From: a virus
IMG/VR virus record: IMGVR_UViG_3300042922_000517
Coordinates: 1 to 51,010 of that record
Strand: one strand, 5' to 3'
DNA length: 51,010 nucleotides
In this document: positions 37,301-48,438 of the stretch, in pieces
Numbering within the stretch: the first letter of the stretch is position 1
How the letters are laid out: each line of letters begins with the position of its first letter
Notes under the pieces: generated by a model
The model's input: only the letters and a program-made list of their open reading frames with translations
Told to the model about the DNA's origin: nothing
Databases searched by the model: none
Program-made: the position numbers and the translations under genes

Positions 37301-37315
37301 ATAGAGGTGAGCATT

Positions 37316-38740
37316 TTGACTGTCGCCATATACATTAGGGTTTCGACAGATGAACAAGCAGAACAAGGCTATTCAATCGATTTTCAAAAAGAAAAGCTAA
37401 TCCATTATTGCAAATCGCAGGACTGGGACGACTACAAATTATACATAGACGATGGATATACAGGAACTAACATGGAAAGACCAGCTTTAAAACGTATGCT
37501 CCGGCATATAAAAGAAAAAAGGGTAACAGCCGTATTGGTCTACAAGTTAGATAGATTGAGTCGGAGGCAACGTGACATTTTAGAGCTTATTGAAGACGAA
37601 TTCGAAAAAAACGGAGCTTCTTTCACTTCTTCTGTTGAAAAAATCGACACTTCTACTGCTTTCGGCAAAGCTATGCTTGGTGTTTTAGCGGTTTTCGCAC
37701 AATTGGATAGGGATATGATTATCGAACGGACTACTGCCGGCAGGCGGCAAAGGGTTAGCCAGGGTAAATGGTATGGAGGGCGTATACCTTTTGGATATAG
37801 TTGGAACAGGGAATTACAGCAATTAGAAATAATACCAGAAGAAGCTCGCATAATTCGAGAATCATATAGATTATATCTAAATGGTCACTCGCGGTTGTCT
37901 ATTGCCGAATGGGCTGCTCCTCGCTGTCTTAGCAGGACAATAGATCATTCTGTAATCAGGGACATTCTTTCAAGACAAATTTATACTGGGAATCTTGGGT
38001 ATGTCGGGAATATCTATGAAGGAAAACATGAAGCCATCATTGATCAGGCTACATGGGATGCGGTTCAGATTGAGTTAGAAAAAAGAAAGGATGGAGCCAC
38101 CCCGATAGGAGTATACTTGTTAACTGGATTACTCCAATGCGGAGTATGTGGCGGAAATGTAGTCCATGTAAGAAGGAAATCAAAACATAAAAATAAGGAA
38201 TATGTCTATGAATTCTATGGATGTAAAGATCAACATGTAAGGCCAAAAGATAGAAGAGCCGGAAAAGCCTGTACAATGGGTTATATTAGGAGAGACGAAG
38301 TTGAAAAGTTTGTGATTTCAAAAATAAAGGATATCTCCTTAGACCCTACAAAAATAACTAATATGTTGAAAAACAAAAAAGGCGAAGTTTCTGATTTAAA
38401 TGAACAAGTCATGCAATTGAACGATTCACTTAAAAAAGTAAATACAAATCTCGAAAATCTATATGATGCAATTCAGAATGGAGACATTAAGGCTTCAGCT
38501 GTAAGTGATAGAATTAAAAACCTCGAATTACAAAGAGATAGACTCGAAGAAGATCTGGATGATATTTTAGACATTAACCCCAAAGCAATTGACGAAAAGA
38601 AAACACAAAAACTATTCCACGATATAGGAACTGCATGGGAATTTTTCACTGAGGACGAACAAAAGATAGCTGTCCGGAAGTTGGTAAAATCCATTTCTCT
38701 TATCAAAGGTACCCCACCAGAAATTGAATGGTTCTTCTAA
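37316..38740 (+). CDS. Large serine recombinase (phage integrase)
   Basis: A 474-residue integrase. The N-terminal resolvase domain has YIRVSTDEQ with catalytic Ser10, DDGYTGTNMERP, and KLDRLSRRQRDILEL. The recombinase domain starts near 150 (GGRIPFGYSWN). A zinc ribbon lies near 280-325 (CGVCGGNVV with GKACTMG), then a coiled coil (~345-430). TTG 37316 is chosen because AGAGGTGA lies 5 bases upstream. It is co-transcribed with the repressor. It should catalyse directional attP x attB integration. Confidence 0.95.
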   Translation: MTVAIYIRVSTDEQAEQGYSIDFQKEKLIHYCKSQDWDDYKLYIDDGYTGTNMERPALKRMLRHIKEKRVTAVLVYKLDRLSRRQRDILELIEDEFEKNGASFTSSVEKIDTSTAFGKAMLGVLAVFAQLDRDMIIERTTAGRRQRVSQGKWYGGRIPFGYSWNRELQQLEIIPEEARIIRESYRLYLNGHSRLSIAEWAAPRCLSRTIDHSVIRDILSRQIYTGNLGYVGNIYEGKHEAIIDQATWDAVQIELEKRKDGATPIGVYLLTGLLQCGVCGGNVVHVRRKSKHKNKEYVYEFYGCKDQHVRPKDRRAGKACTMGYIRRDEVEKFVISKIKDISLDPTKITNMLKNKKGEVSDLNEQVMQLNDSLKKVNTNLENLYDAIQNGDIKASAVSDRIKNLELQRDRLEEDLDDILDINPKAIDEKKTQKLFHDIGTAWEFFTEDEQKIAVRKLVKSISLIKGTPPEIEWFF

Positions 38741-38859: not shown

Positions 38860-39102
38860 TTATGACTTAATGCTGAGAATTTCTTTAACCCCAGTTATGT
38901 AACTCTCTTCTACCGTATGTTGAGTATGGGATATAAATAAATCTCCTAACTCCATAATTATTTCTGGACTTAACGCCTCTTGACCTCTTAATATATCCAT
39001 AAATGATTTATACCCATCAGGTTTTGAATTAGCCAGTATATCGTCACTTATTTCTGAAATTCTCTTTTCTATACTTGGATTTAACCATTCCAACATATCC
39101 AT
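38860..39102 (-). CDS. Hypothetical 80-residue helical protein
   Basis: MDMLEWLNPSIEKRISEISD at the start, helical throughout, ending EESYITGVKEILSIKS. GGGGG lies 7 bases before ATG 39102. It adjoins the signalling region; no family recognised. Lower GC than the structural genes, like its neighbours. Confidence 0.6.
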   Translation of the reverse strand: MDMLEWLNPSIEKRISEISDDILANSKPDGYKSFMDILRGQEALSPEIIMELGDLFISHTQHTVEESYITGVKEILSIKS

Positions 39103-39213: not shown

Positions 39214-39627
39214 TTAAGGGCTTGTCGGCCAGGACAGGCCCTTAAACAATTTTATTCCATTGCTATTTACTGTTGGAATAGCAGGGTTACCTTCACGGAA
39301 TGATCTATACCCAGAGCTAGACATAGTACAACTCTTTGTCTCTTTTTCAATATTTTCATCAAAATACGCTAGTTTGAATTCCTTATCTACAACTTTTATT
39401 TTATCTACGTTTGCCAACACTCCTCTATCTACCCTCATAAAATTCAATCCGGCCTTTTCAAATGCAGCCTCCCAAAATCTTAAGGGTCCAACGGCAACAT
39501 ATTGTTTTTCTTCGGTGTGAACTGCAATTGATAGTCTATTGTCAAATTGCATATATAAGATATCCTCGACTTTTATTTGCTGAATACCCTTGCCTTCTTC
39601 ATTTTCAGTAACTGTTAAATAGATCAT
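39214..39627 (-). CDS. Stand-alone LytTR DNA-binding protein (first paralogue)
   Basis: A 137-residue protein made almost entirely of one LytTR domain: KVEDILYMQFDNRLSIAVHT, GPLRFWEAAFEKAGLNFMRV, then DRGVLANVDKIKVVDKEFK. There is no receiver domain as in AgrA. It is clearly paralogous to the protein at 40222..40602 (shared ...YW/FW..., VDR..V.N.D.I.V.D and YF(D/E)ENI). ATG 39627 with GGGGAG 7 bases upstream is preferred to the longer frame from 39678. The 3' end lies in an inverted repeat. Confidence 0.82.
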   Translation of the reverse strand: MIYLTVTENEEGKGIQQIKVEDILYMQFDNRLSIAVHTEEKQYVAVGPLRFWEAAFEKAGLNFMRVDRGVLANVDKIKVVDKEFKLAYFDENIEKETKSCTMSSSGYRSFREGNPAIPTVNSNGIKLFKGLSWPTSP

Positions 39628-39744
39628 ATAACCACTCCCCATCACTTTTCTTCTGTTCCCCCTTATTAATGCCGGCAATATAATCGTGTGTTATAATTCT
39701 ATCGAGATCACCTTCTTAACTTAATTTTAATAATTGGAGGTATT

Positions 39745-40221: not shown

Positions 40222-40602
40222 CTATGCCAAACTTGTTTTTTTCTGAATTACACTGTACTTTTCCTTCGCTTTTTCAAAGTTAATATTTGTGAAGGTGCAC
40301 CGCTTCGAAGTGTGAGTTATATTTTCTTCGAAATACGCTATATGATACATTTCATCCAAAACAACTATCCTATCTAAATTAACGACATTTGTTCGATCAA
40401 CAGCAACAAAATTATATCCATTACTGTCTAACCCATTTTGCCAGTATTTTAGAGTGCCTGTTAAGAAAAATGAGGAATCAACCGTATGAACTATAACCCT
40501 ATCAATTCTACGTTCAAATTCCATGAAAGCAACCTCTTTTATAGGTAAAGAGATGAGACCGCTCTCAGCGTTAATATCTTTACTTACCACTAAGCTGTCC
40601 AC
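40222..40602 (-). CDS. Stand-alone LytTR DNA-binding protein of the Agr-like operon
   Basis: A 126-residue LytTR domain without receiver: IKEVAFMEFERRIDRVIVHT, GTLKYWQNGLDSNGYNFVAV, then DRTNVVNLDRIVVLDEMYH. LytTR domains (as in AgrA) bind paired direct repeats and activate transcription. GTG 40602 has GGAG about 9 bases upstream and lies 15 bases after agrD. Being last in the sensor-agrB-agrD operon it takes the place of agrA, but it cannot be phosphorylated in the normal way. Confidence 0.85.
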   Translation of the reverse strand: MDSLVVSKDINAESGLISLPIKEVAFMEFERRIDRVIVHTVDSSFFLTGTLKYWQNGLDSNGYNFVAVDRTNVVNLDRIVVLDEMYHIAYFEENITHTSKRCTFTNINFEKAKEKYSVIQKKTSLA

Positions 40603-40617
40603 TTATACCATCTCCAT

Positions 40618-40734
40618 CTATTTCAGAAGTTCTTTAGGAGCATCTCCGCCATAAATGAACAATGCGCTCGCTGGAGTAACGGTCAGTAGGGCTACGAATG
40701 CCAGAGCAGAAGAAATCATATTCCATTTTTTCAT
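40618..40734 (-). CDS. agrD: AgrD-like autoinducing peptide precursor
   Basis: A 38-residue peptide, too short for routine ORF listing. Residues 1-20 (MKKWNMISSALAFVALLTVT) form the amphipathic/hydrophobic leader. Residues 23-28 (SALFIY) are the likely cyclic core, and GGDAPKELLK is the charged tail with the AgrD hallmark PKEL. There is no cysteine, so Ser23 would close a lactone, as in some staphylococcal AIPs. ATG 40734 follows GGAGGTGA located inside the end of agrB; the stop is 40618. Position directly after agrB is canonical. Confidence 0.85.
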   Translation of the reverse strand: MKKWNMISSALAFVALLTVTPASALFIYGGDAPKELLK

Positions 40735-40735
40735 A

Positions 40736-41260
40736 TTAGTCTTTCACCTCCTTTCGTGGAATTAAAGTCAGGGACTGTACCAGGAAGCAAGCAGCTATTA
40801 CTGCCGATCCAACTATGAGGTTCAGCGATATCAGCATTACCGAGGCTACTTTTAAATGTGGGTAATACTTCTTCGGTATTCGTGACTGATTAGCAATTCC
40901 GGACGGTGCGAACAACAATGCCAATAAGATACTGATTATAGTGAATATAGAAGTTAACAAGTGATTCACATTTACATATGAAAGGCCCACAAATAATGTA
41001 GTTGTAACGACCACACACATATCTCCCGTTTTCAAATGAAATCCACCCGATATCATTCGAAGTAATGCAAATGACGCCATAATAATTATTACTTCTTTCG
41101 TGTGTCCGGTTAACACGCCCCCGATAACCGTAAGAACAATAATGGACACCGTATTTATCAAAACAGCTAATGCATGCTTAAGCACAGCCAATGAGGCAGG
41201 GTGCTCCGGGGCTCTATTCTTCACAGCAACCGCCATTTTAAGCGATATCTGATCTATCAC
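40736..41260 (-). CDS. agrB: AgrB-like peptide-processing membrane protease
   Basis: A 174-residue integral membrane protein with about four to six spans. The catalytic block LLRMISGGFHLKTGDMC holds Arg68, His75 and Cys82; the His-to-Cys spacing of 7 matches AgrB. The enzyme cleaves the C-terminal tail of AgrD and cyclises the core for export. It overlaps the upstream sensor gene by 4 bases and precedes agrD by 1 base. Slightly shorter than typical AgrB (about 190). Confidence 0.93.
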   Translation of the reverse strand: MIDQISLKMAVAVKNRAPEHPASLAVLKHALAVLINTVSIIVLTVIGGVLTGHTKEVIIIMASFALLRMISGGFHLKTGDMCVVVTTTLFVGLSYVNVNHLLTSIFTIISILLALLFAPSGIANQSRIPKKYYPHLKVASVMLISLNLIVGSAVIAACFLVQSLTLIPRKEVKD

Positions 41261-41880
41261 ATATCTCTCTCCTTTTTTATAGCATATCTAAGGAAAATTA
41301 ATAATGAAGCTACAAAGAAGATAAGAGCTATCCAAATTTCATTCACATAAAGAATAAACGTAATGGCAATTAAAAATAGAATGATAGTCGCAAGTATTAT
41401 GATAAGCTCATATTTCAATCTGAATTTTTCTAAATCAAATGAAAAACCATAGCCGAATTTATACAAAATCATTGAAATAGGTACAACAAAAACCGTAGTA
41501 GATGTTTGAAGTATGTACCCGTATGTAATATTAGACTGGGCAACATCAATAGATCCGAAGAGCAGAATAGCCAACATTGCCTGGACCATACCAAAACCAA
41601 CTAACCCCACGATTGACATCATAAATGAGCCTATCAACGATATCTTTACTACAGCTGCATACAACAGGGTGAAAAAGAGTACGTTAATTAATGGAGCTAG
41701 GTATGCAAGAGACAACTCATTCCGCAAAATGAAACTTTGTAAATTCATGAGCAAAATTACAAATAGCGCTTCCCAAAAGTAGTCCATTATTTTAAATCTG
41801 AAAACACTCATACTTAACGCATACCAGGCGAAAACTTCTAATGTTGAAAAAAATACAAACCCAATCGGCTCTAACGACAC
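41257..41880 (-). CDS. AgrC-like membrane sensor domain lacking a histidine kinase
   Basis: About 207 residues with six to seven hydrophobic spans. The pattern FSTLEVFAWYALSMSVFRFK, then NLQSFILRNELSLAYLAPLI and GSFMMSIVGLVGFGMVQAML, matches the N-terminal sensor half of GHKL (AgrC-type) kinases. It stops after the last span with a basic tail (RYAIKKERDM); no H-box or ATP-binding domain follows. GTG 41880 (AGGCGGTG upstream) is preferred; ATG 41913 is an alternative. It may bind the peptide and act as decoy, regulator tether or partner of a host kinase. Confidence 0.72.
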   Translation of the reverse strand: MSLEPIGFVFFSTLEVFAWYALSMSVFRFKIMDYFWEALFVILLMNLQSFILRNELSLAYLAPLINVLFFTLLYAAVVKISLIGSFMMSIVGLVGFGMVQAMLAILLFGSIDVAQSNITYGYILQTSTTVFVVPISMILYKFGYGFSFDLEKFRLKYELIIILATIILFLIAITFILYVNEIWIALIFFVASLLIFLRYAIKKERDM

Positions 41881-41889
41881 AAAACAACA

Positions 41890-41984
41890 CCGCCTGACAT
41901 AATTTTCATTCAATAGATTAATTATAGTTGTTTATACCTATCTGAGTATACTAAAATATGCATTTATAGAGTACGGTCAGGCGG
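41890..41984. repeat. CCGCCTGAC / GTCAGGCGG inverted repeat flanking the Agr-like operon promoter region
   Basis: Perfect 9-bp arms at 41890-41898 and 41976-41984. Between them the minus strand has a TATAAT (41921-41926) with a poor -35, which would suit an activator-dependent promoter. Confidence 0.4.
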
Positions 41985-47445: not shown

Positions 47446-48438
47446 TTATTGTACTAAATACCGTTTGTGTTGTTCCCGCTTACGTTCTTCGGTAATTCTG
47501 GCATACCGGAGTGTGGTCTGCGGATCCGAATGGCCCATAAGTTCCTGCACAGCGACCAACTCCGCGCCATTATTAAGCGTGAGCGTTGCAAAGGTGTGCC
47601 GCAGCACATGCGGGCTCACCTTGTCCTGAAGCCCAGCTGTACGGGCAATAACGGCTATCTCCCGCTGTATGCCCCGTTTGGTCAGGCGGCGATACTCCTT
47701 GCGCTCTGTCACCATCAGAGCCCCGCAGTTATCATTCCGGCTCTTCAGATATTTGTTGAGGTGGTACATTGCTTTGAACGAAAAGTAAACCTCCCGCTCC
47801 TTATTCCCCTTACCGATCACTCGACAACTCATAGATTGTTGATTGATTGCGTCCCGGTCCATCCCGTAGACCTCAGACAGCCGGCAGCCTGTTGCATACA
47901 TGATTTCGATAAAGGCCCGCTGCCGGACCGTCTTGCAGGATTCCCGCAGCATCTCCAACTCAGGGATTGTCAGAGCTTTCGGCAGCCGCTTCTCCAGCTT
48001 CGGCGTTTTTAGCTTGGCGGATGGGTCACGGGGAATAATCTCCTCCCCTGAAAGCCAGCCGAAGAAGCTTTTAAGTACGGACAACTTCTTGCCGATCGTA
48101 CTCATCTTGAGGTGATTGAATTGTCCAAGGTATGCCCGTATATCGGCGGCTGTGACGTTGTCTGTCCGCTTGCGAACGTGACGGAAGAATATGTGTAGGT
48201 CCAAGGCATATCCGTCCAGCGTCAACGGACTGAGCCCTTCCAGGCGCTTTGATGATAGAAACATCTTGAGCTTCTCTTCGCCATCCGGGTGCGGTTCATC
48301 TTCTTTGATACGCTGAATATGGTAATCAGACACAATGATAGATAGTATAGACTTTGTTCGTTCAACTTCTAAATCAGGGAAAACGTTATAAATCACGGCC
48401 ACGACATCGGACAATAGCTGCTCACTTGCATTATTCAT
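47446..48438 (-). CDS. Tyrosine recombinase (XerC/D-like)
   Basis: A 330-residue recombinase. The core-binding domain lies at ~55-135 and the catalytic domain at ~150-320 with Arg186 (GCRLSE), Lys210 (GKGNKER), His277/Arg280 (HVLRHTFAT), His303 (GHSDPQTT) and Tyr312 (RYARI). It also has an unusual ~50-residue N-terminal extension. It lies between tail fibre and lysis genes, transcribed leftward, and is divergent from a small HTH gene. The phage already has a serine integrase, so this enzyme may act in dimer resolution, DNA inversion or a second integration route. Confidence 0.92.
   Translation of the reverse strand: MNNASEQLLSDVVAVIYNVFPDLEVERTKSILSIIVSDYHIQRIKEDEPHPDGEEKLKMFLSSKRLEGLSPLTLDGYALDLHIFFRHVRKRTDNVTAADIRAYLGQFNHLKMSTIGKKLSVLKSFFGWLSGEEIIPRDPSAKLKTPKLEKRLPKALTIPELEMLRESCKTVRQRAFIEIMYATGCRLSEVYGMDRDAINQQSMSCRVIGKGNKEREVYFSFKAMYHLNKYLKSRNDNCGALMVTERKEYRRLTKRGIQREIAVIARTAGLQDKVSPHVLRHTFATLTLNNGAELVAVQELMGHSDPQTTLRYARITEERKREQHKRYLVQ

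What the first reader, a model, noticed from the sequence alone, without database searches (positions are those of the whole stretch)
40222..41913. Phage-borne Agr-like signalling operon with no kinase and no receiver
Seen: a four-gene leftward operon encoding an AgrC-like membrane sensor half, AgrB (Arg68/His75/Cys82), a 38-residue AgrD and a LytTR protein, closed by a terminator. Known: agr normally needs a GHKL kinase and a receiver-LytTR regulator; agr genes have been reported in a Clostridioides difficile phage. Inference: here signal production is complete but the phosphorelay is cut out, so reception must use host proteins, direct membrane-to-LytTR contact, or the peptide acts only to jam or mimic host quorum sensing. 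It could couple lysogeny to population density.
Basis: partly seen in the sequence, partly recalled or inferred. Interest (0 to 1): 0.92.

Follow-up and report, generated by a model that had tools for sequence, protein, structure and literature searches.

The report
Kinase-less agr quorum-sensing cassette in phage
This bacterial virus carries a complete peptide-signalling kit whose receptor has lost its usual enzyme half, and the same stripped-down kit turns out to be the usual version of this signalling system in Paenibacillus and its relatives, so it is real, conserved and probably works by a shorter route than the textbook one.

Summary
A leftward operon at 40222-41880 encodes a 7-helix membrane protein, AgrB (R68/H75/C82), a 38-residue AgrD with a ring serine, and a LytTR protein with no receiver. 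The record holds no GHKL kinase and no receiver domain. The cassette is not a phage oddity. The same order (membrane protein, AgrB, AgrD, LytTR, no kinase) occurs in five named Brevibacillus and Paenibacillus phages, in many IMG/VR phages, on Paenibacillus plasmids, and as the predominant agr type on Paenibacillales chromosomes (28 of 29 fetched AgrB loci in nine host genomes). The membrane protein is an AgrC sensor domain without its kinase: two full-length AgrC kinases in one related genome carry the same domain (E 9e-36 and 5e-32), and nearly all genome-wide matches outside the order lie beside AgrB. The best mechanism is a receptor that binds the AgrD lactone and controls LytTR directly, as in LytTR Regulatory Systems; this contact is inferred, not shown. 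A role in lysogeny is plausible from position only. Hargreaves 2014 had noted HATPase-less AgrC candidates in three of these phages, without the LytTR gene or the chromosomal family. Verdict: real, a new variant of the agr kind.

The parts
41257..41880 (-). AgrC-type sensor domain without kinase (207 aa, seven membrane helices; ORF extends to 41913)
   Evidence: ORF; AlphaFold2 mean pLDDT 87.6, pTM 0.84, seven long helices; same domain in full-length AgrC kinases of L187 (E 9e-36, 5e-32); PHROG 15604 E 3.6e-6
40736..41260 (-). AgrB, peptide-processing membrane protease (174 aa), overlapping the sensor gene by 4 bases
   Evidence: Pfam PF04647 E 1.8e-17; R68/H75/C82 invariant among phage relatives
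40618..40734 (-). AgrD-like propeptide (38 aa), predicted lactone ring S-A-L-F-I before the PKEL tail
   Evidence: TIGR04223 E 0.011, below cut-off; Ser or Cys at or within one residue of this position in about 75 of 96 related propeptides
40222..40602 (-). LytTR DNA-binding regulator without receiver domain (126 aa)
   Evidence: Pfam LytTR E 6.8e-8; model pLDDT 93.7, one LytTR fold plus a C-terminal helix
40180..40222 (-). intrinsic terminator of the operon
   Evidence: RNA fold -23.1 kcal/mol, z -4.9
41910..41960 (-). probable operon promoter, TATAATTAAT element conserved in closely related cassettes
   Evidence: shared AGTATAC-N19-TATAAT block in window, L026, L030, L035, L063, L070
39214..39642 (-). 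second receiver-less LytTR gene, companion of the cassette
   Evidence: Pfam LytTR E 5.3e-9; same companion in L026 and L028
39745..39972 (+). small HTH regulator convergent with the cassette, conserved at this place in related phages and prophages
   Evidence: Pfam HTH_3 E 9.7e-6; homologue behind LytTR in L028, L030, L032, L036, L049, L065, L068, L070, L071, L073

Best explanation
The locus is a phage-borne member of a conserved, kinase-less agr-type signalling family of Paenibacillales. AgrB cleaves AgrD and releases a small lactone peptide (ring S-A-L-F-I). The peptide binds the 7-helix membrane protein, an AgrC sensor domain that ends at the membrane where the kinase would begin. The receptor then controls the receiver-less LytTR protein by direct contact (holding it or releasing it), without phosphate transfer, and LytTR switches promoters of the element that carries it. 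Shown: gene content, conservation, homology of the sensor to AgrC, and absence of kinase and receiver. Inferred: lactone structure, ligand binding, direct contact, and the promoters controlled (in the phage possibly the lysogeny region next door).
For: Same order without an in-operon kinase in phages Abouo, Davies, Emery, Harrison and Paisley, IMG/VR contigs, Paenibacillus plasmids and chromosomes: 28 of 29 fetched AgrB loci in nine host genomes, 23 of 29 in an order-wide sample, and the sensor in 101 of 115 non-redundant loci. With one GHKL profile, 20 of 30 AgrB loci from other Bacillota had a kinase within 1.5 kb, whereas L003-L075 had none in the operon. Sensor is homologous to AgrC: full-length kinases in L187; hhalign 94.7%, E 6e-8 against AgrC sensor halves, control AgrB 0.2%; in 249 Bacillota genomes, matches outside Paenibacillales lie beside AgrB in nearly every case. 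Sensor and LytTR distances correlate (r 0.80; partial 0.55 given AgrB), while AgrB-LytTR drops to 0.17 given the sensor. The LytTR domain persists when the output changes: LytTR-GGDEF-EAL in L140/L188 and REC-LytTR in L009. Precedent for a membrane protein controlling LytTR: LytTR Regulatory Systems (PMC6193735).
Against: No direct test of contact. The paired 9-bp repeats that mark LRS promoters were not enriched upstream of these operons, and 21-bp-period repeats only weakly. At least a dozen cassettes have no LytTR gene recognised next to the sensor (L029, L031, L033, L037, L038, L048 and others), so the sensor may have other partners. L009 keeps a receiver in its regulator. The partial correlations could partly reflect differences in alignment length and noise. 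The sensor has no solved structural relative.
Confidence: 0.62

Rival explanations
1. A kinase encoded elsewhere in the host works with the sensor in trans, and the phage LytTR acts together with host receiver-LytTR proteins, for example as a heterodimer or competitor at the same sites.
For: Host genomes carry many GHKL kinases; in other Bacillota the sensor half and kinase can be separate genes beside AgrB (L176, L183); one cassette has a receiver-LytTR regulator (L009).
Against: The LytTR protein here and in nearly all relatives has no receiver to be phosphorylated; cassettes occur on chromosomes, plasmids and phages without a linked kinase.
Confidence: 0.18
2. The cassette mainly interferes with host signalling: its peptide jams or mimics the agr systems of the host or of rival phages, and the receptor serves as a sink or self-protection.
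For: Hosts carry several related cassettes with different predicted rings (SALFI here, SVFFV in L026, SVFYI in L028); agr cross-inhibition is established in staphylococci (general knowledge).
Against: Jamming needs only AgrB and AgrD, yet the sensor and usually LytTR are kept, and sensor and LytTR co-vary.
Confidence: 0.12
3. A decayed or passenger agr remnant picked up by the phage, without present function.
For: Kinase and receiver are absent.
Against: Four intact reading frames, invariant catalytic residues, conserved order across very divergent copies and a conserved place in related phages.
Confidence: 0.03

Closest known systems
Staphylococcal agr (AgrB, AgrD, AgrC, AgrA)
   Same: AgrB protease, AgrD propeptide with PxEL tail and ring residue, AgrC-type membrane sensor, LytTR output
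   Different: no GHKL kinase on the sensor and no receiver on the regulator; serine instead of cysteine in the ring; order sensor-B-D-LytTR
Agr genes of Clostridioides difficile phage phiCDHM1, and the AgrB/AgrD/membrane genes noted in phages Davies, Emery and Abouo (PMC3901668)
   Same: phage-borne agr; the three latter phages hold this very cassette, and that paper noted that their AgrC candidates lack the HATPase domain
   Different: phiCDHM1 has a GHKL kinase and no regulator; that paper does not report the LytTR gene, the chromosomal family, or that the membrane protein is a true AgrC sensor domain
LytTR Regulatory Systems such as HdrRM and BrsRM (PMC6193735)
   Same: a receiver-less LytTR regulator encoded with a membrane protein that controls it without a kinase
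   Different: different membrane protein family and gene order, no AgrB or AgrD, and their promoter repeats were not found enriched here
Arbitrium (AimP/AimR) of SPbeta phages
   Same: a phage peptide signal of possible use in lysogeny
   Different: arbitrium is sensed inside the cell by an RRNPP receptor; here a membrane receptor of the AgrC type is encoded

Membership tests
agr quorum-sensing system | AgrB with catalytic His and Cys | tested here: met
   Pfam E 1.8e-17; R68/H75/C82 invariant
agr quorum-sensing system | AgrD propeptide with ring Cys/Ser and acidic P-x-E-L tail | tested here: met
   Ser ten residues before PKEL; family model 15.9 bits, under its cut-off of 19
agr quorum-sensing system | AgrC membrane sensor domain | tested here: met
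   homologous to sensor halves of AgrC kinases
agr quorum-sensing system | GHKL histidine kinase domain on AgrC | tested here: not met
   none in gene, operon or record
agr quorum-sensing system | AgrA with receiver plus LytTR | tested here: not met
   LytTR only; no Response_reg in record
agr quorum-sensing system | secreted cyclic peptide activates the response | not testable with these tools
   needs chemistry and reporter assay
LytTR Regulatory System | receiver-less LytTR regulator co-encoded with a membrane protein | tested here: met
LytTR Regulatory System | 9-bp direct repeats 12 bp apart upstream of the operon promoter | tested here: not met
   no enrichment over shuffles in 54 upstream regions
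LytTR Regulatory System | membrane protein inhibits the LytTR regulator | not testable with these tools
   genetic test needed

The most novel reading that the evidence does not exclude
A widespread class of peptide quorum sensing in which an AgrC sensor domain, stripped of its kinase, signals straight to a LytTR domain without phosphorylation. It is the predominant agr architecture of Paenibacillales, moves among chromosomes, plasmids and temperate phages, and accepts swapped outputs (tandem LytTR, LytTR-GGDEF-EAL); in phages it informs the lysogeny region.
Probability: 0.5. Interest if true: 0.86.

Novelty: new variant of a known kind. Interest (0 to 1): 0.68.

Why it matters
Agr is a textbook two-component system. 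A predominant natural version without kinase or receiver would show that an AgrC sensor can control a transcription factor directly, would give a compact four-gene peptide switch, and would make phage-to-phage and phage-to-host peptide communication testable in Paenibacillus and Brevibacillus, including already isolated phages such as Abouo and Davies.

Tried and rejected
Hidden kinase or receiver in the phage: none. LRS-type repeats at the operon promoters: not enriched; 21-bp-period repeats in 6 of 58 upstream regions against about 1.4 expected, equalled by period 13, so weak. Copies of the conserved promoter block elsewhere in the phage: no more than chance. LytTR sites before the neighbouring HTH gene: none clear. 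Fold search of the sensor in PDB and viral models: no significant match. Single-protein scans of viral contigs and the first genome-contig scan found nothing; a closer alignment worked. DNA-level search in phages: no match.

Full report
Observation. The minus strand at 40222-41880 carries four tightly packed genes: a membrane protein, AgrB, a 38-residue AgrD-like peptide, and a LytTR protein without receiver. The membrane gene more likely starts at the GTG at 41880 (ribosome site AGGCGG, 207 aa as in relative L026) than at 41913. A strong hairpin with a U-run closes the operon. The record contains no HATPase_c_5, HATPase_c or Response_reg match. A second receiver-less LytTR gene lies downstream (39214-39642), beyond a small HTH gene on the other strand.

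Context. The record is a temperate siphophage: terminase, portal, head, tape measure, tail fibre, endolysin and a DnaD-like replication gene, a serine recombinase and an S24-type repressor, plus a tyrosine integrase-like gene. The cassette lies between the lysis genes and the recombinase/repressor pair. In related phages or prophages (L030, L063, L064, L070) it follows the same small phage genes, and a homologue of the small HTH gene sits behind LytTR on the opposite strand in ten loci. So the cassette has a fixed place in this phage group.

Conservation. The same order occurs in Brevibacillus phages Abouo, Davies and Emery and Paenibacillus phages Harrison and Paisley, where the LytTR gene is annotated hypothetical, 'peptidase' or 'dipeptidyl aminopeptidase'; in IMG/VR contigs; on Paenibacillus plasmids; and in genomes of Paenibacillus, Cohnella and Brevibacillus. 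To avoid bias I searched nine of those host genomes with the Pfam AgrB model: of 29 AgrB loci fetched besides the window, 28 had the membrane gene and one had a separate GHKL ATPase. In a sample from across the order, 23 of 29 loci had the membrane gene with no kinase in it. Overall the membrane gene was found in 101 of 115 non-redundant loci and all four genes in 71 (some loci have only 1.5 kb flanks and the peptide was found by a simple pattern). As a control, a GHKL profile built here found a kinase within 1.5 kb of AgrB in 20 of 30 loci from other Bacillota, but in L003-L075 only two unrelated large kinases on the opposite strand. At the edges, L185 has a separate GHKL kinase gene upstream and L186 a weak GHKL match downstream.

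What the membrane protein is. AlphaFold2 gives seven membrane helices at good confidence; positive-inside charges suggest N-terminus out, C-terminus in, ending just after the last helix (my reading). A profile of the family matches the N-terminal 200 residues of two full-length AgrC-type kinases in a related genome (L187, E 9e-36 and 5e-32), the kinase half following. It also aligns with AgrC sensor halves of other Bacillota (hhalign 94.7%, E 6e-8; control AgrB 0.2%). In 249 Bacillota genomes the profile matched only 17, and nearly every match outside Paenibacillales lies within 2 kb of an AgrB gene (comparison of coordinates). It is therefore an AgrC sensor domain without a kinase.

The peptide. 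Counting back ten residues from P-x-E-L, where staphylococcal AgrD has its ring cysteine (general knowledge), about 75 of 96 propeptides have Ser or Cys at or within one residue; the window has Ser, predicting ring S-A-L-F-I. About 21 propeptides, including those of Abouo, Davies, Emery and Harrison, have no ring nucleophile there, so a linear product or another chemistry is possible in that branch.

Mechanism. With no receiver on LytTR, phosphate transfer to it is not an option. Known precedent for control of a receiver-less LytTR by a membrane protein is the LytTR Regulatory Systems (PMC6193735). Indirect support for direct receptor-LytTR contact: both are constant parts; their distances co-vary (r 0.80; partial 0.55 given AgrB, against 0.17 for AgrB-LytTR given the sensor); and a LytTR domain is kept when the output is altered (LytTR-GGDEF-EAL in L188, tandem LytTR in L010, L013-L015 and L025, REC-LytTR in L009). 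Against: LRS-type promoter repeats are not enriched, at least a dozen cassettes have no LytTR recognised beside them, and L009 keeps a receiver. I hold direct control as most likely (0.62), a host kinase in trans 0.18, interference only 0.12.

Phage role. Phage and chromosomal copies are intermixed on a tree (25 phage or prophage and 48 other copies; 11 changes, shuffled mean 21), and the window groups with chromosomal L026 and phage-like L028 with support 1.0. Repeated exchange is therefore likely. Related cassettes in host genomes have different predicted rings, so the phage may carry its own dialect. Regulation of lysogeny is suggested only by position.

Novelty. Hargreaves 2014 (PMC3901668) reported AgrB, AgrD and membrane proteins lacking HATPase in Davies, Emery and Abouo. 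An agr-like cassette in P. polymyxa is mentioned in PMC7425212. In the papers searched I found no account of the LytTR partner, of the sensor's identity, or of kinase-less agr as the predominant form in Paenibacillales. The library holds only open-licence papers, so earlier descriptions may exist.

Noticed in passing
L188 3787-5595 (and L140 2225-3447): Cassette whose fourth gene is a LytTR-GGDEF-EAL fusion, preceded by several sensor paralogues and a CAAX-protease-like gene.
   Followed up: partly
L009 4957-5712 (same in L074): Cassette whose regulator is a receiver-LytTR fusion with apparently intact phospho-site, still without a kinase.
   Followed up: partly
L010, L013, L014, L015, L025: Fourth gene encodes about 235-246 aa with two LytTR domains in tandem.
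   Followed up: no
L003, L004, L005, L006, L010, L012-L016, L019 and others: AgrD-like propeptides without Ser or Cys at the ring position; the product may be linear.
   Followed up: partly
L029, L031, L033, L037, L038, L048: Chromosomal sensor-AgrB-AgrD cassettes without any LytTR gene or kinase in the operon.
   Followed up: partly
window 38860-39102: Small gene between the second LytTR and the serine recombinase, with homologues behind LytTR in L016, L028, L072 and by eye in phage Harrison; possible recombination directionality factor, untested.
   Followed up: no
window 37307-38740 and 47446-48438: The phage carries both a serine recombinase and a tyrosine integrase-like gene.
   Followed up: no
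L004 2604-3263 and L005 2607-3272: Phages Davies and Emery carry a second, paralogous sensor gene directly upstream of the cassette.
   Followed up: no
L176, L183, L184, L096: In other Bacillota and one Brevibacillus, sensor half and GHKL kinase are separate adjacent genes beside AgrB, a split form of AgrC.
   Followed up: partly
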